A DNA stretch of 40,304 nt from a virus. The stretch lies in IMG/VR virus record IMGVR_UViG_3300017963_000137, positions 1 through 40,304 of that record; one strand, given 5' to 3'. Shown piece after piece: positions 1,875-39,825 of this stretch. Under the pieces are notes generated by a model. That model made no database searches. It had not been told where the DNA came from and saw nothing but the letters and a program-made list of their open reading frames with translations. The stretch's first letter is position 1; each line of letters starts with the position of its first letter. Position numbers and translations under genes: made by a program.

Positions 1875-2041
1875 TGTCGATCCTCCTTTGATTTAAGTAA
1901 AATATTTATTCCTATCACCAGCAGCACCACCCCGGCAGCTCCCTGCCATCCGAAATAATGCAATAGGTAATAGACACCCGCTCCGCTTATAACAGCGGAA
2001 ACAAACGCCCTGAGAATTGTCCGTAATATCCAGGATTTCAT
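1871..2041 (-). CDS. Candidate holin, 56 aa with two membrane helices
   Basis: The start at 2041 overlaps the stop of the methyltransferase gene as ATGA; longer upstream starts would run far into that gene. Two hydrophobic segments are visible, at about residues 10-30 and 36-50, joined by a short turn containing GWQG, with a charged C-terminal tail. Small size, two helices and direct coupling to the endolysin gene are typical of class II holins, which open the inner membrane at a set time. Holins diverge too fast for family assignment by eye, so the call rests on topology and context. Confidence 0.65.
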   Translation of the reverse strand: MKSWILRTILRAFVSAVISGAGVYYLLHYFGWQGAAGVVLLVIGINILLKSKEDRQ

Positions 2042-2526
2042 ATATCTTTCTTCCAATCCCAGTATCCATAGCCGGTCAATTTCCCATCCCAGACATTTAT
2101 CATACACTCCTTTACGTGTGGATATTTCTCACCCTCAAAAGTAATGCGACCCCGTAAAATCAGGGTGAGAGCATTACCTTCGACATAATCCCGATACCAG
2201 CATGTGCCCGTATCCGCAAGAGTAAGGGAAACTATTCTGGCTCCCAGGCGGGATTCGTCTCTGCATTTTTTCATCCATGGACCAGTACCGGAGAAACCAG
2301 GATTGAGCCAGAAGTATCGGCCGCCACATCCCTCATATTCCTTTTGCCAAAGATGCCAATCTTGTTTAAAAGAATCTGAGAAGCTTCCGTCTAGTTGATA
2401 ACCAAAGTTTGAAACTGCGCGGCTGTTTTCATGGGTCGCAGCGAGATCAAACCATAATTGCCACCGATTATTTACGGCTTCGATAAATTCCATCGGGGTA
2501 ACGTGGTCCTGCCTACCTTTTTTCAT
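2038..2526 (-). CDS. Phage Dam-family DNA N6-adenine methyltransferase, variant active site
   Basis: The 162-residue protein follows the phage Dam family (DNA N-6-adenine-methyltransferase). It opens with TPMEFIEAV, then FDLAA (residues 26-30) in the place of the AdoMet-binding DPCA motif, then WLNPGFS (74-79) at the catalytic position, and ends with an RGRITF strand and a late VW motif. The catalytic loop is normally NPPY; here it is NPGF, so the second proline and the aromatic tyrosine are changed. Phe can replace Tyr in some methyltransferases, so activity is possible but should not be assumed. It may protect phage DNA from restriction, perhaps alongside the Mom-like enzyme. Confidence 0.75.
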   Translation of the reverse strand: MKKGRQDHVTPMEFIEAVNNRWQLWFDLAATHENSRAVSNFGYQLDGSFSDSFKQDWHLWQKEYEGCGGRYFWLNPGFSGTGPWMKKCRDESRLGARIVSLTLADTGTCWYRDYVEGNALTLILRGRITFEGEKYPHVKECMINVWDGKLTGYGYWDWKKDI

Positions 2527-32571: not shown

Positions 32572-33066
32572 ATGAAAGTTACTGATAGGCTCATCTCAGA
32601 ACTCAAGGCAAGCGAATACAATCCCCGGAAAATATCGGACAAGGCACTGGAGGATTTGAAGAAATCCCTGGAAACTTTCACGGCCGTGGAGCCGATAGTC
32701 ATAAATTCCAACCCACAGCGCAAGGATATCGTCATAGGAGGCCACCAAAGGCTCAAGGCAGCCCAGTTACTCGGCTGGAAAAAGATGCCGTGTATCGCCG
32801 TGGATTTGCCCCTGGATAAAGAACGGGAACTCAATATCCGGCTGAATAAAAACGCCGGGGAGTGGGATTGGGATAAATTGCTGGAATTTGAAGTTGCCGA
32901 CTTGATTACATTCGGATTTGAGGAAGGGGAACTCGGAACCGGGCCGGACTTTGAACCAGTGGGATCAGAAAGTCAAGGAAAACTGGATGAACTACAGCCA
33001 AAATTAATCAAATGCCCAAAATGTGGAGAAACTGTTGATATCCGGCACTGCTCAGCTAAAAGTTGA
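32572..33066 (+). CDS. ParB/Srx-like domain protein with zinc-ribbon tail, 164 aa
   Basis: The N-terminal 100 residues match the ParB-like nuclease/DNA-binding domain: LKASEYNPRKIS, an EPIVI strand and the VIGGHQRLKAAQLLGW box (GGHQR at 56-60). In many phages this domain is fused or linked to a DNA methyltransferase, with the same ELNIRLNKNAGEWDWD segment. Here it ends in CPKC...C (Cys148, 151, 160) and is followed, with a 44-bp overlap, by a Mom-like enzyme instead. It may target the modification enzyme to DNA or use CTP as other ParB-fold proteins do. The ribosome site is AAAGGAT. Confidence 0.83.
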   Translation: MKVTDRLISELKASEYNPRKISDKALEDLKKSLETFTAVEPIVINSNPQRKDIVIGGHQRLKAAQLLGWKKMPCIAVDLPLDKERELNIRLNKNAGEWDWDKLLEFEVADLITFGFEEGELGTGPDFEPVGSESQGKLDELQPKLIKCPKCGETVDIRHCSAKS

Positions 33067-33748
33067 TTTTTGTACACCTATGGCATCAGATTATGCCTGT
33101 AAAAATTGGCATTATTCAAAGCGGTCTCCATTCGGTAAAAATAATAAATTTGGGGTTTGGGAAAATGGAAAATATATCGGATGTATAATTTATGGATATT
33201 CAGCAACCCCAAATGTTGCCAAAGGATTGGGTTTACTTCAGAATGAAATTGTAGAATTACAGCGTGTGGCGCTTACTAAACATATATCCCCAGTATCCAA
33301 AATTGTCGCTATTTCTATAAAACTTTTAAAAAAATATTCTCCGGGATTAAAATTAATAGTTTCGTTTGCAGATGTAGATCAGAATCACCACGGCGGGATA
33401 TATCAAGCTGGAAATTGGATTTATACGGGAATAAGCATGGAAAATGTAAAATCCGGTTATATAGTACGGGGTAAATATATGCACTGCCGATCTGCAGGAA
33501 TGAAAGGCCGAAATACTCTTGAATGGGTCCGAATGAATTTAGATCCAAAGGCAAAAAATTTTATTACAAAAGGCAAACACCGATATTTAATGCCATTAAA
33601 AAAGAATATAAAACAACAATACATAAAATTATCAAAACCATATCCCAAGCGCCAGCCGAGTGAAACGGGCTCCGGGAACCACCCGGAGAAAGGCGGGGTA
33701 GATCCGACCCTGGCGCTCCAGCCTGCAAAAGCCTGCCAATCAGGGTAA
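33023..33748 (+). CDS. mom: Mom-like DNA adenine hypermodification protein
   Basis: The protein is clearly similar to phage Mu Mom and its homologues. Shared blocks are VDFCTPMASDYACKNWHYSK, GVWENGKYIGCIIYG, EIVELQRVALTKHISPVSK and LIVSFADVDQNHHGGIYQAG. Mom (a GNAT-like enzyme) converts adenine to N6-carbamoylmethyl-type adenine in DNA and blocks many restriction enzymes. The conserved NWHY and FAD-x-x-x-x-H-H-G blocks, where catalytic or metal-binding residues are proposed, are intact. The start is uncertain: GTG at 33023, or TTG at 33035 after GGAG. The gene is much more AT-rich than its neighbours. The last 35 or so residues (from about SETGSGNH) come from a GC-rich folded segment. Confidence 0.9.
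   Translation: MEKLLISGTAQLKVDFCTPMASDYACKNWHYSKRSPFGKNNKFGVWENGKYIGCIIYGYSATPNVAKGLGLLQNEIVELQRVALTKHISPVSKIVAISIKLLKKYSPGLKLIVSFADVDQNHHGGIYQAGNWIYTGISMENVKSGYIVRGKYMHCRSAGMKGRNTLEWVRMNLDPKAKNFITKGKHRYLMPLKKNIKQQYIKLSKPYPKRQPSETGSGNHPEKGGVDPTLALQPAKACQSG
33648..33717 (+). ncRNA. Cloverleaf-like folded element overlapping the end of mom
   Basis: An 8-bp inverted repeat (AGCGCCAG at 33648-33655, CTGGCGCT at 33710-33717) encloses a CCG/CGG hairpin, a perfect 7-bp hairpin (CTCCGGG at 33670-33676, CCCGGAG at 33682-33688) and a weaker GGCGG/CCGAC arm with one mismatch. The whole resembles a four-arm junction of 70 nt. It lies just before the small terminase gene. It lacks the T-loop and anticodon rules of tRNA. 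It could be an RNA element, a packaging signal, or DNA recognised by the terminase. Confidence 0.45.
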
Positions 33749-33750
33749 AA

Positions 33751-34137
33751 ATGCCGAAAAACAGCACATCATGGAAACCAGGACAGTCCGGTAACCCGGC
33801 AGGCAGGCCAAAGAATACCCGCTATTTTTCCGACGTGGCAAAGGAACTGCTTACCGGGAAGAAAATAGATGTCACCTGGACAATAACCGATGAAAAAGGC
33901 AATAAAAAGACAAAACGCCTGAACCTGGAATCATCCGAAAAAACCAATTACGGGATTGCTGCCGCCCTGATCGTGGAAGCTGTCAAAGGCAACGTGCAGG
34001 CAGCCAAGGAGCTGATCGACCGGGTAGAGGGCAGACCGAAGCAAGCCGTAGAAATGTCCGGGGGCCTGGGCCTGGGCGACATGAGCCTGGACGAGATAAA
34101 GGAACTACTTGCAGAAGTTAGAGCCCGAAGAACTTGA
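33751..34137 (+). CDS. Small terminase-like protein (DUF5681 type), 128 aa
   Basis: The N-terminus has STSWKPGQSGNPAGRPK, the signature of the DUF5681 family often found just before phage large terminase genes. The middle is basic and strand-rich, and the C-terminus has IVEAVKGNVQAAKELIDRVEGRPKQA, a helical DNA-binding type region. The gene lies directly before and overlaps the large subunit. It should recognise the packaging start and stimulate the large subunit. The role is inferred from family and order. Confidence 0.75.
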   Translation: MPKNSTSWKPGQSGNPAGRPKNTRYFSDVAKELLTGKKIDVTWTITDEKGNKKTKRLNLESSEKTNYGIAAALIVEAVKGNVQAAKELIDRVEGRPKQAVEMSGGLGLGDMSLDEIKELLAEVRARRT

Positions 34138-35605
34138 GCGCCTGGAATGTGGCCTCGAATTGGAGCTTTTAAAACGCGACTGCCAAAATTCCCTCTATTC
34201 CTTCCTTCGCACCTTCTGGAAATACTTCGATGAGTCGCAATTCGTCGATAATTGGCACATAAAATACCTCTGTGACCTGGCCCAGGATATCATAATGAGG
34301 GCAATCAGGGGCGAGCCGAAGGACAAGGATCTCATCGTCAACGTGTCCCCGGGCACCACGAAATCGGGTATTTTCTCGGTTATGCTGCCGGCCTGGTCCT
34401 GGACGGTGGCCCCCTGGTTCCGCTGGATTACCGGCAGCTTTGAAATGGGCTTGGCCACGTTCATGGCGACGAAAAGCCGGGATATAATCCGATCTGACCT
34501 TTACCAGCTGCTTTTCGGCGACGTGTTTCACGTGAAACCGGACCAGGATAATAAAACCGAGTACCACACGAATAAAACCGGAGCCCGGAAGGTATGCAGC
34601 ACCGGCGGCAGTATCGTCGGATTCCACGGCCACGCCCTTTTAATCGACGATCCCCTGAATCCGAAGGATGTCCTCGGGGCCTCGGAAAACATGAAAAAAA
34701 CCGTAAATAACTGGTTTGACGGTGTTCTCCCCACCCGGAAGGTGCATAAGCGCACCACCCCGACAATCCTGGTAATGCAGCGCCTGGCGACGGACGACCC
34801 CACGGGGCACCTCCTGGAGAAAAAGCGGGACGAGATAATGCACATCTGCCTGCCGGGAGAGCTCACGGAACTGGACAATGTGAAGCCGCCGGAACTGAAA
34901 AAACACTACCAGGGCAATCTCTTCGACCCGGTAAGGCTCGGCCGGCCGGAACTGGCGGAACTGAAAACCGACTTGAGAGCCAAGGGATACGCCGGGCAGA
35001 TACTGCAACACCCCAGGGCAATCGAGGGAACCATTTTCAAAAGGGCCTGGTGGCGCTATTTCGACGTTTTACCCTCCGGTCCGCCCATCCGGAAAGTACA
35101 GTCCTGGGATACGGCATTTAAAAAAGGCAAGGAAAACGCCAAAAATGCCATGATTTACTTCTATCAATACCAGACCGGTTTTTACATCACCAAGGTATTT
35201 TCTGAGCACCTGGAGTTCCCGCAACTGGACGAGCAGATCCGCATGGAATACAACGCGGACCCGTGCCATGCCCTGCTGATCGAGGACAAGGCGAGCGGAA
35301 TTTCCCTCATCCAGACATACCAGCAAACCACGACAATGCCGGTAATTCCGGTTAATCCATGCGGGGATAAGGAAGCCCGGGCCAATGCCAGCACCCCAAA
35401 CTTGGAGGCGGGTAACGTATATTTACCCCGGGGGGCACCATGGGCAGCCGAGTTCGTGGAGATATTTGCAGGCTTCCCGGATATTGAGTACAAGGATTTA
35501 ATCGACTGTTTCAGCCAGTTTTTTCAATGGATAACCGATAAACCAAGCGGGGTACCACAAATTAAATCAAGGAGAACAAGAAATGTCACACTCGAAGGGT
35601 GGTAA
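34109..35605 (+). CDS. Terminase large subunit, 498 aa
   Basis: This is the DNA-packaging motor and nuclease. The ATPase half has a variant Walker A PGTTKS at 81-86, Walker B LLIDDP (177-182), and a coupling region LVMQRLATDDPTGHL. The nuclease half has QSWDTAF (Asp334), LLIEDKASG (Asp393) and KDLIDCFSQF (Asp462/465), the RNase-H-like acidic set. The start is a TTG at 34109 with AAAGGAAC upstream, 29 bp inside the small subunit gene. No change in key residues is evident apart from the Walker A variant. Confidence 0.93.
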   Translation: MQKLEPEELERLECGLELELLKRDCQNSLYSFLRTFWKYFDESQFVDNWHIKYLCDLAQDIIMRAIRGEPKDKDLIVNVSPGTTKSGIFSVMLPAWSWTVAPWFRWITGSFEMGLATFMATKSRDIIRSDLYQLLFGDVFHVKPDQDNKTEYHTNKTGARKVCSTGGSIVGFHGHALLIDDPLNPKDVLGASENMKKTVNNWFDGVLPTRKVHKRTTPTILVMQRLATDDPTGHLLEKKRDEIMHICLPGELTELDNVKPPELKKHYQGNLFDPVRLGRPELAELKTDLRAKGYAGQILQHPRAIEGTIFKRAWWRYFDVLPSGPPIRKVQSWDTAFKKGKENAKNAMIYFYQYQTGFYITKVFSEHLEFPQLDEQIRMEYNADPCHALLIEDKASGISLIQTYQQTTTMPVIPVNPCGDKEARANASTPNLEAGNVYLPRGAPWAAEFVEIFAGFPDIEYKDLIDCFSQFFQWITDKPSGVPQIKSRRTRNVTLEGW

Positions 35606-38077: not shown

Positions 38078-38680
38078 ATGAAAATGATCGTAGTAGGAAA
38101 CGGAAACATAATGCGTCCACAGGGACATTTAATAAATATGTTCGACACGGTTGTCCGTGTTAGTGGGTTTCAGATAAATGGATATGAATCACTTGTGGGG
38201 ACGAAAACCGATATTGTCAGTGTGGGCCGTCCGGAAAAACTCGATCCGCTCCCGCCTAAAATATGGATCGGCAATCCCTATGGTGTGAGTGCCATTCCGG
38301 AAGGTATAATGAAAAAGGCGTTCCCCGATGGCTGGGAGTCTAATTCCAATGAATGTATAAAAGACACCTACGATTTATGCGGATTCGATCCAAAGGTGAA
38401 CCACCCTACCCTGGGAATGCTTACCATTATCATGGCGGTTAATTTCGGTTCTCTCTTTTATGAAAAACCTATATACGTTACTGGGTTTGAATTTGGGCAT
38501 GAAGGATGGCCACGATATTATTACGATAAAAAACCCTGGAAAAATACACCGGATAATCATCACAAGCCGGATGTTGAAAGAACGGTTTTAAAAAAATTAA
38601 TTGCCGACGGTCATGTCGAATATCTTCACATGCACGATGTAATTCTCCTTGAGGAAGATAATTCGGAGAGGTTAAATTGA
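38078..38680 (+). CDS. GT29/sialyltransferase-like glycosyltransferase, 200 aa
   Basis: The sequence starts with a nucleotide-sugar-type loop IVVGNGN and a VRVSGFQINGYESLVGTKTDIVS segment, in the way of GT29-like transferases (DxVxRxN then GTKTD), and continues to HPTLGMLTIIMAV and PIYVTGFEFG, equivalent to the second sialyl motif. These features suggest use of a CMP- or similar sugar donor. The substrate is unknown: virion proteins, DNA or host surface glycans are all possible. It has the AAAGGCTCA leader and lies in a head-gene operon with a second glycosyltransferase. Confidence 0.75.
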   Translation: MKMIVVGNGNIMRPQGHLINMFDTVVRVSGFQINGYESLVGTKTDIVSVGRPEKLDPLPPKIWIGNPYGVSAIPEGIMKKAFPDGWESNSNECIKDTYDLCGFDPKVNHPTLGMLTIIMAVNFGSLFYEKPIYVTGFEFGHEGWPRYYYDKKPWKNTPDNHHKPDVERTVLKKLIADGHVEYLHMHDVILLEEDNSERLN

Positions 38681-39825
38681 ACGCCAAAGTCGAATGTTTG
38701 AGTAAAAAAATCGGCACCACCCGGGGGCCGGTGAGGGAATGCGATGGCCGGCTGTCGGTGGTGATGATAGTCAAGGATGAAGCCGACAACATGGAGGGGG
38801 CACTTTCTACTTTTATCCCCTTTGCCGACGAGATAATCATAAACGACACGGGCAGCACCGACGGCACCATCACAAAAGCCATAGAAGTTTTTACCGCCCT
38901 GGATTACAATAATTTCCGTATTATCAAATCTGCCTGGCAGGAGGACTTCAGCCTTGCACGAAACCAGGCGCTGAGCTGCGCCCACTGCTCATGGGTAATA
39001 TGGCTTGATGCCGACGACCGGATCCCTACTTCGGAAGTGGAGAAAATAAACAAGCTGAAAACCGCGCCCTGCGACAGGTTTTTTTCCTTTAAGCTGGTAA
39101 ACATTCACAGCGGCCTGCCCATCGGTAGTTCGTGTTTTCAAACAAGGATGTTTCCAAATCATGGGGATATGAAATGGCAAGATCCGATCCATGAACAGAT
39201 AATTTATGCTTGCGCCGAGCTGGGCCTGCATAATAAAGCCGTCCCGGTTACTATACACCACTGGGGATACAATGATGAGGACGGCCGGCGCGGGAAAGCA
39301 GAGCGCAACATGAAGCTCATGGAAAGGCTCGATGTATATGAGCAGATACCGGCTAAAATGATGATGAAAGCAAATTCCTATTATCAGTTAAAACGATATG
39401 AGGAGGGGATTGAACTGCTTAAACGGTTATGGGCATATCCGGACCTTAATCGCATTGATTATGATCTATGGTATACCGTGCCGGCTGAAATCGGCATGGG
39501 ATATCTGAAACAAAAAGAATATGAAACCGCCATCGAGTGGTATGATAAAGCCCCCGAGACGAGCCTGGAGGCAAATTACTGGAAAGGTTTCTGTTTCTAT
39601 CGCCTAATGAAGTACAAAGAATGTGTGATCTGGTTTCAAAAAGCCATCGAATGCAAGGAGCCGGTAACAAAATGCACGACCGATTTTCACACCTGTCGGC
39701 TTAACGCCTATAATTTCCTCGGCCAGGTGTTGTCGGGCCTGGGGGAGTACAAAACCGCAATAGATATTTACCACCGGATGCACGAACTTTACCCAGGAAT
39801 TAAAATACAGCCAGAAGATGACTAA
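38677..39825 (+). CDS. GT2-family glycosyltransferase with TPR-like tail, 382 aa
   Basis: The start is a TTG at 38677 overlapping the upstream stop (TTGA), with GGAGAGG 7 bp before. Residues about 25-200 are a GT-A fold: LSVVMIVKDEADNM, the NDTGSTDGT loop at 56-64, the DADD motif at 111-114 (divalent metal and nucleotide binding) and a HHWGYNDEDGRRGK acceptor-side block. The rest, about 210-382, is helical with repeated Tyr/Ala pairs and looks like TPR units, as in SunS-like protein glycosyltransferases. It may glycosylate a virion or host protein. It overlaps gpG by 8 bp. Confidence 0.88.
   Translation: MNAKVECLSKKIGTTRGPVRECDGRLSVVMIVKDEADNMEGALSTFIPFADEIIINDTGSTDGTITKAIEVFTALDYNNFRIIKSAWQEDFSLARNQALSCAHCSWVIWLDADDRIPTSEVEKINKLKTAPCDRFFSFKLVNIHSGLPIGSSCFQTRMFPNHGDMKWQDPIHEQIIYACAELGLHNKAVPVTIHHWGYNDEDGRRGKAERNMKLMERLDVYEQIPAKMMMKANSYYQLKRYEEGIELLKRLWAYPDLNRIDYDLWYTVPAEIGMGYLKQKEYETAIEWYDKAPETSLEANYWKGFCFYRLMKYKECVIWFQKAIECKEPVTKCTTDFHTCRLNAYNFLGQVLSGLGEYKTAIDIYHRMHELYPGIKIQPEDD

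What the first reader, a model, noticed from the sequence alone, without database searches (positions are those of the whole stretch)
33023..33748. AT-rich Mom-like hypermodification gene coupled to a ParB-like protein
The Mom-like gene overlaps the ParB-like gene by 44 bp and has visibly lower GC than its neighbours. In related phages the ParB-like domain accompanies methyltransferases; here it accompanies Mom and has a zinc-ribbon tail. The pair could be a targeted DNA-protection system: ParB-like targeting plus adenine hypermodification. In Mu, Mom needs Dam-dependent control; here a Dam-like gene sits in the other operon.
Basis: partly seen in the sequence, partly recalled or inferred. Interest (0 to 1): 0.65.

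Follow-up and report, generated by a model that had tools for sequence, protein, structure and literature searches.

The report
Phage ParB–Mom cassette with embedded tRNA-Gly

Summary
In detail: 33023-33748 encodes a true Mom-family enzyme (Pfam PF25680, 151 bits), much more AT-rich than its neighbours and overlapping a ParB-like gene. The pair is no accident. Almost every Mom of this clade (130 of 133) has a ParB-like gene with one distinctive C-terminal tail (DDQGxLD...CPxCGxxF) directly upstream. The same ParB core, fished without reference to Mom, sits upstream of, or is fused to, other DNA-modifying enzymes (methyltransferases, TET/JBP oxygenase, glycosyltransferases, ABC-GNAT). Its tail class follows the enzyme. 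So ParB looks like a general partner and the tail like an enzyme-specific dock.

The GC-rich end of Mom (33649-33720) is also a cloverleaf tRNA-Gly-like gene: GCG...CGC acceptor, U73, CCA, NCC anticodon. It covaries strongly, occurs in all three frames relative to Mom, is found in 58 of 68 Mom clusters, and nowhere but at Mom ends in 664 kb searched, control loci included. Mom's known product is a glycinamide-adenine, so I propose that glycyl-tRNA is the donor: tRNA-dependent DNA modification. Donor and docking are inferred, not shown. Dam- or Com-type control is not supported.

The parts
32572..33066 (+). ParB-like protein, 164 aa: NTP-binding ParB/Srx fold core (about residues 1-120)
   Evidence: PF02195 E 7e-11; PHROG 620/498; sequence match to solved Spo0J/Noc/ParB CTPases E 7e-14; AlphaFold mean pLDDT 87
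32950..33063 (+). Mom-specific C-terminal tail of the ParB-like protein, FEPVGSESQGKLDELQPKLIKCPKCGETVDIRHCSAKS, with a CxxC zinc knuckle at 33013-33024
   Evidence: Alignment A3 of 45 tails: F, L, C, P, C invariant; tail profile hits only beside ParB-type Moms in 3-7 Mb genomes; two-strand knuckle predicted
33023..33748 (+). Mom-family DNA adenine hypermodification enzyme; most likely start TTG 33035 (GGAG at 33025-33028)
   Evidence: PF25680 151 bits; AlphaFold pLDDT 88, best PDB match Mu Mom 8bv8, E 4e-11; the serine mutated in 8bv8 (S124) and the H-Y, E-L-R, D and Y positions shared by all Moms are present
33649..33720 (+). tRNA-Gly-like cloverleaf overlapping the 3' end of mom: acceptor GCGCCAG/CUGGCGC, U73, CCA; anticodon-type loop GAACCAC (ACC); T-arm with a bulged A
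   Evidence: Covariance model R1, window not in training: 46.3 bits, E 5e-10 in the whole window; covariation in relatives
33001..33643 (.). AT-rich segment (34% GC): ParB zinc tail plus Mom domain
   Evidence: Likelihood change-points
33751..34137 (+). DUF5681 protein, probably terminase small subunit, next gene in the operon
   Evidence: PF18932 E 6e-14; directly upstream of the terminase large subunit 34109-35605
34109..35605 (+). Terminase large subunit
   Evidence: PF17289, TIGR01630, PHROG 38
2038..2526 (-). Dam-like adenine methyltransferase in the other operon (no link to mom shown)
   Evidence: PF05869 E 3e-10

Best explanation
The locus is a three-part phage DNA-hypermodification cassette. 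(1) Mom (GNAT fold) adds a glycine-derived group to adenines of phage DNA. (2) The tRNA-Gly-like RNA encoded in the last ~72-100 nt of mom is charged by the host's glycyl-tRNA synthetase and hands the glycine to Mom; it is a dedicated carrier rather than a decoding tRNA. (3) The ParB-like protein is the DNA-handling partner: an NTP-binding ParB-fold core that loads on or slides along phage DNA, with a C-terminal motif plus zinc knuckle that recruits Mom. The product would be the glycinamide-adenine known from phage Mu, which blocks restriction enzymes. Shown here: the identity of Mom and of the ParB core, the partner-specific tail, the conserved covarying tRNA-Gly-like element and its link to Mom. 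Inferred: charging, glycine donation, loading, recruitment, and protection from restriction.
For: Mom. Pair: 88/88 loci in the first set; over all fetched loci 130 of 133 ParB-type Moms have ParB plus the tail, and 0 of 11 divergent Moms (Mu, Proteus, Listeria, Polaribacter and others) do. In 399 Bacillota genomes the tail profile gives 4 strong hits, all directly upstream of the 4 full-length Moms found independently (one is a seed genome). ParB as generic partner: a Mom-blind sample with one ParB core gives 42 fusions to N6/N4 MTase, 20 knuckle-tailed ParBs before C5-MTase, 12/12 DQG-knuckle ParBs before Mom, and knuckle-less ParBs before TAGT, Tet_JBP, D12 MTase and ABC-GNAT. tRNA-Gly-like: all 20 pairs form in all 15 sequences, 13 pairs with changes on both sides, 70 double-change cells versus 20 in shuffles, slid structures 34-46% paired; 46 model hits in 664 kb, every one at a Mom 3' end, none in the non-Mom control loci or the 8 divergent-Mom loci without ParB; glycine anticodon NCC in 51/54 versus 4.6 in shuffles; G1-C72, C2-G71, G3-C70, U73 and CCA, the known glycine identity set; present in all three frames relative to Mom (31/14/7), so not a peptide motif; annotated as tRNA-Gly next to Mom in two sequenced phages. 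Chemistry: Mu's base is a purin-6-yl glycinamide (Swinton 1983, in the reference list of PMC4461284). Precedent from general knowledge: GNAT-fold Fem transferases take glycine from dedicated non-decoding tRNA-Gly in staphylococci.
Against: 10 of 68 Mom clusters (phiEf11-like, Paenibacillus/Lysinibacillus, Enterobacterales prophages and others) have no such element at the Mom end, and the one contig read whole has no tRNA that ARAGORN or model R1 can see; they, like Mu, would have to use host tRNA-Gly. No ParB-Mom complex, charging or donor was tested. Mom's model resembles acetyl-CoA GNATs as well. The window's own element lacks U33 and a normal D-arm and is called by neither ARAGORN nor the Rfam tRNA model. 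The tail could equally bind RNA or mediate ParB dimerisation.
Confidence: 0.55

Rival explanations
1. The tRNA-like element has nothing to do with Mom chemistry: it is a helper tRNA-Gly for translation, a decayed tRNA gene, an attachment site, or an RNA-processing signal that happens to lie after mom.
For: Many phages carry tRNAs; two members look like normal decoding tRNAs: L072 (RF00005, 41.7 bits) and Dropshot tRNA-Gly(ccc) on the opposite strand.
Against: Nearly all are glycine types, and they occur only at Mom ends, with no such element at the ends of other ParB-linked enzymes. U33 is missing in about two thirds, which argues against decoding. Compensatory changes show selection, not decay. 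It is full length, lies among late genes and differs between phages, unlike an att site.
Confidence: 0.3
2. The ParB-like protein is a regulator rather than a DNA-loading partner: like DndB it limits expression of a toxic modification enzyme, or like Mu Com its zinc tail controls translation of the overlapping mom gene.
For: DndB, a ParB-superfamily protein, is reported as an ATP-dependent negative regulator of phosphorothioation (PMC10853773); Mu com overlaps mom by 80 nt in the record and Com is a zinc-finger translation activator.
Against: No structured RNA at the junction (mean z +0.14 versus -0.48 and -0.44 in controls). In some loci a ~66-aa gene separates ParB and mom, yet the tail is kept. 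The same core is fused to MTases in 42 loci, which fits a working subunit better.
Confidence: 0.25
3. The ParB-like protein is a nicking nuclease or nucleotidase directed at host or competitor DNA, Mom protecting phage DNA (a restriction-modification-like pair).
For: A ParB-methylase fusion of Bacillus cereus nicks DNA non-specifically (cited in PMC5512222).
Against: The tail class follows the type of modifying enzyme, which a free nuclease would not need; canonical ParB folds act as NTP switches (PMC12704722).
Confidence: 0.12

Closest known systems
Phage Mu com-mom (Mom structure PDB 8bv8)
   Same: Same enzyme family and fold, same conserved residues; a small zinc-binding protein is encoded upstream and overlaps mom
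   Different: Only 23-25% identity; Mu has Com (full CCCC zinc finger, no ParB core), an RNA translation-inhibition structure and no tRNA-like element; the window's Mom lacks Mu's ~30-residue N-terminal extension
ParB-MTase fusion proteins of phages (PHROG 498; PMC12704722)
   Same: Homologous ParB core tied to a DNA-base-modifying enzyme
   Different: There ParB is fused; here it is a separate protein with a Mom-specific zinc-knuckle tail. Mom and TAGT neighbours turn up in no passage of that survey read here ('Mom' occurs 0 times in its text)
Enterococcus phage phiEf11, Arthrobacter phage Wyborn, Microbacterium phage Dropshot, Salinibacter phage B2_17 ParB-Mom genes
   Same: Homologous overlapping or adjacent gene pair (39-50% identity in Mom); Dropshot and B2_17 are annotated with tRNA-Gly beside Mom, and the Wyborn Mom end matches model R1
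   Different: phiEf11 has no tRNA-like element at the Mom end; in Dropshot the tRNA-Gly is on the opposite strand
Fem-type glycyl-tRNA transferases and the non-decoding tRNA-Gly of staphylococci (general knowledge)
   Same: GNAT-fold enzymes using glycine carried on a dedicated tRNA-Gly
   Different: They act on peptidoglycan; no sequence relation to Mom was tested

Membership tests
Mom family (PF25680) | Profile match over the whole domain above the curated cut-off | tested here: met
   151.4 bits versus cut-off 27.1, positions 2-202 of 202
Mom family (PF25680) | Residues common to all Moms, including the serine mutated in 8bv8 (S124) | tested here: met
   H58, Y59, E108, L109, R111, S124, D149, G156, Y159 of the 241-aa Mu protein are all kept in the window
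Mom family (PF25680) | Converts adenine to N6-carbamoylmethyl (glycinamide) adenine in DNA | not testable with these tools
   Needs nucleoside mass spectrometry
ParB/Srx superfamily | ParB N-terminal fold | tested here: met
   PF02195; solved ParB/Noc/Spo0J matches E 7e-14 with alignment A2; confident model
Chromosome-partitioning ParB | HTH DNA-binding domain and C-terminal dimerisation domain | tested here: not met
   164 aa; TIGR00180 matched only at 40 bits, cut-off 58; no HTH hit; ends in a zinc knuckle
Mu com-mom regulatory system | Com-type CCCC zinc finger upstream of mom | tested here: not met
   The tail has a single CxxC on a ParB core
Mu com-mom regulatory system | Stable RNA structure at the mom start | tested here: not met
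   Junction z +0.14 over 57 loci, window +1.3
Mu com-mom regulatory system | Dam-methylation-dependent transcription | not tested
   A Dam-like gene is present, but GATC sites before the operon were not examined
tRNA-Gly | Cloverleaf with conserved base pairing | tested here: met
   Model R1 46.3 bits in the window; covariation in 15 relatives. The window's D-stem is imperfect in the model alignment
tRNA-Gly | Recognised as a canonical tRNA by ARAGORN or the Rfam tRNA model | tested here: not met
   Window: none; relatives L072, L004 and L110 are recognised by one or the other
tRNA-Gly | Glycine identity: C35 C36, G1-C72, C2-G71, G3-C70, U73 | tested here: met
   Read in the window sequence; 51/54 relatives NCC
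tRNA-Gly | Charged with glycine | not testable with these tools
   Needs an aminoacylation assay

The most novel reading that the evidence does not exclude
Momylation is tRNA-dependent DNA modification: Mom is a GNAT-fold aminoacyl transferase that moves glycine from glycyl-tRNA to the N6 of adenine, the glycyl adduct rearranging to glycinamide. These phages encode a dedicated non-decoding tRNA-Gly inside the 3' end of the mom gene, plus a ParB-fold DNA partner that docks Mom through an enzyme-specific zinc tail.
Probability: 0.5. Interest if true: 0.95.

Novelty: new variant of a known kind. Interest (0 to 1): 0.85.

Why it matters
The donor of Mom's glycinamide group has been unclear since the 1983 structure of the base (general knowledge; one review read here still suggests glycyl-CoA, PMC7824862). 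A glycine-type tRNA-like gene overlapping the end of mom in phages of many phyla, and at no other ParB-linked enzyme, points straight at glycyl-tRNA and makes the question testable in one in-vitro reaction. It would join tRNA biology to DNA modification. Separately, the ParB survey shows one NTP-fold protein serving as partner of many chemically unrelated base-modifying enzymes with tails matched to the enzyme, which suggests a common loading mechanism behind many phage anti-restriction systems and a way to predict new ones.

Tried and rejected
1) Mu-like translational control: folding the ParB-mom junction in 57 loci gave no structure beyond chance. 2) 'GGxxPTxxLQ' at Mom's C-terminus as a protein motif: rejected, because the same DNA is read in three frames in different Moms and folds as a tRNA, and the peptide is predicted disordered (residues 211-235, pLDDT below 50). 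3) Tail and Mom exchanged as one module between ParB cores: distance correlations are inconclusive (partial r: core-tail 0.44, tail-Mom 0.40, core-Mom 0.24), though the window's GC break lies at the tail. 4) The zinc tail as general to all phage ParBs: half right; knuckles also occur before C5-MTases, but the DQGxLD motif goes with Mom. 5) Natural ParB-Mom fusions: none found. 6) Close relatives of the window's own ParB: none in IMG/VR. 7) A first, automatic alignment of 34 tRNA-like elements misplaced the 5' half; the 76-nt class, aligned without gaps, was used instead. 8) Catalytic residue numbering recalled from memory did not fit the record's 241-aa numbering, so only residues read from alignments are cited.

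Full report
What is there. The reported gene is real. ORF 33023-33748 is a Mom-family protein with a full-length Pfam match far above cut-off and a PHROG match. Its predicted structure is confident and its best solved match is phage Mu Mom, 8bv8. Positions shared by all Moms compared, including the serine mutated in the Mu crystal, are present. Upstream, 32572-33066 encodes a 164-aa ParB-like protein. The genes overlap by 44 bp if Mom starts at GTG 33023, but the better start is TTG 33035, with GGAG six bases upstream (32-bp overlap). The Mom domain is the most AT-rich 594-bp stretch of the window.

The pair is conserved. The closest annotated Moms (Enterococcus phiEf11, Arthrobacter Wyborn, Microbacterium Dropshot, Salinibacter B2_17) all have a ParB-like gene overlapping mom or next to it. 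In the 80 best IMG/VR loci and in most bacterial genome hits (Yersinia, Serratia, Paenibacillus, Nitrosomonas, Ignavibacteria, Desulfobacterales, Planctomycetes and others) the same holds. Over all fetched loci, 130 of 133 Moms of this clade have ParB plus tail, and none of 11 divergent Moms does. What is known of Mom control in Mu (Com, Dam) concerns that other branch.

The tail. The ParB proteins end in F-x-P-G-x-E-D-D-Q-G-x-L-D...C-P-x-C-G-x-x-F, then stop within about 4-18 residues. This tail is more conserved than the ParB core (51% against 38% mean identity; Mom 54%). A profile of it gives one hit (two in the genome with two Moms) in each of eleven 2.6-7.2 Mb genomes, always at the ParB-Mom locus, and none in the two genomes whose Mom lacks ParB. 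In 399 Bacillota genomes it gives four strong hits, all directly upstream of the four full-length Moms found independently with PF25680; three weak hits are elsewhere, one of them a ParB before a C5-methyltransferase. In 399 Pseudomonadota genomes it hits only the seed.

The ParB core is a general partner of base-modifying enzymes. A scan with the ParB of Moraxella phage Mcat8, which precedes and overlaps a C5-methyltransferase, did not involve Mom. The loci fetched with it and with one further ParB fall into classes: 42 ParBs fused to N6/N4 MTase; 20 of 21 stand-alone ParBs with a plain knuckle tail lie before a C5-MTase; all 12 with the DQG tail lie before Mom; 17 without a knuckle lie before other enzymes. 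Pfam names those tested as TET-associated glycosyltransferase, Tet_JBP oxygenase, D12 N6-methyltransferase, ABC plus GNAT, and a Mu-type Mom. The tail class therefore follows the enzyme. The published ParB-fold survey reports phage fusions with MTases, and the word 'Mom' does not occur in its main text (PMC12704722). The 2013 genomic survey of modification systems, which may mention ParB, was not held.

The hidden third part. Mom's last ~30 residues are GC-rich in DNA and predicted disordered in protein. Other Moms of the clade show 'GGxxPTxxLQ', or quite different peptides encoded by the same DNA in another frame. That DNA is a cloverleaf. In a 76-nt class it follows tRNA numbering exactly: acceptor 1-7/66-72, D-stem 10-12/23-25, anticodon stem 27-31/39-43, T-arm with a bulged A, U73, CCA. 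All 20 pairs form in all 15 sequences aligned; 13 pairs show changes on both sides; 70 double-change cells against 20 +- 3 in shuffles; slid structures pair only 34-46%. Acceptor pairing was used in finding these elements, so the independent evidence is the D and anticodon helices: the anticodon stem was 97% paired at fixed positions against 61% in shuffles. The anticodon is NCC (glycine) in 51 of 54 elements against 4.6 expected; U33, needed for normal decoding, is often absent. A covariance model trained without the window finds the window's copy at 33649-33720 with E 5e-10. In 98 sources (664 kb) it finds 46 copies, every one at a Mom 3' end, in all but one case on the coding strand, and none in loci of other ParB-linked enzymes, of Mu-type Moms lacking ParB, or in a whole Enterobacterales prophage. 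58 of 68 Mom clusters have it. The exceptions are mostly prophages of Enterococcus, Paenibacillus/Lysinibacillus and Enterobacterales.

How it most likely works. Mu's modified base is a purin-6-yl glycinamide (Swinton 1983, via the references of PMC4461284). A glycine-type tRNA tied to the mom gene suggests that glycyl-tRNA is the donor: Mom, a GNAT-fold enzyme, would transfer glycine to adenine N6 and the adduct would rearrange to glycinamide. Fem transferases with dedicated non-decoding tRNA-Gly are a precedent (general knowledge). ParB would load on phage DNA in an NTP-controlled way and hold Mom by its tail; by analogy the fused MTases need no tail. Donor, charging, loading and docking are inferences. 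Moms without the element, including Mu's, would use host tRNA-Gly.

What is not supported. No structured RNA was found at the mom start, so a Mu Com-type mechanism is unlikely. The Dam-like gene exists but nothing links it to mom. Whether the phage DNA is modified is unknown. Sequence alone cannot exclude that the tRNA-like RNA does something else, although its glycine identity and exclusive link to Mom make coincidence unlikely.

Limits. Loci from IMG/VR are partly redundant; numbers are given raw and clustered. E-values of the covariance model are rough. Preprints and subscription papers on Mom's donor could not be searched, so part of the mechanism may already be known to the groups working on Mom.

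Noticed in passing
L009, L011, L012, L014, L018, L020, L026, L033 between ParB and mom: A conserved small ORF (~60-75 aa, ...NHEQKNKNILSRFD...) sits between ParB and Mom in some loci; unknown function.
   Followed up: no
L166, L168-L170, L190, L197: ParB-like proteins overlapping ABC-ATPase plus GNAT enzymes (PHROG 11143), with their own conserved C-terminal tail; a predicted but uncharacterised base-acylation system.
   Followed up: partly
L174, L188, L198, L209, L212, L227, L230 and L220: ParB-like proteins overlapping TET-associated glycosyltransferase genes, and in L220 a Tet_JBP oxygenase; suggests ParB partners in 5hmC-type hypermodification.
   Followed up: partly
L127, L237-L240: Tandem array: ParB-N6/N4-MTase fusion, two knuckle-tailed ParBs, then a C5-methyltransferase.
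   Followed up: partly
L225:2850-3650: A Mu-type Mom behind a ParB with a quite different tail, yet with the same tRNA-Gly-like element at its 3' end.
   Followed up: partly
L008, L041: Two Mom genes in tandem behind one ParB.
   Followed up: no
L111:4625-4697: Clostridia Mom with a tRNA-like element carrying glycine acceptor features but apparently a minimal anticodon arm (possible 3-nt loop).
   Followed up: no
window 38078-39825: Two sugar-transferase-like genes (weak GT29-like match; GT2 plus TPR, PHROG 13126 beta-1,4-glycosyltransferase) downstream of the head genes, AT-richer than the head genes; may be a cargo module.
   Followed up: no
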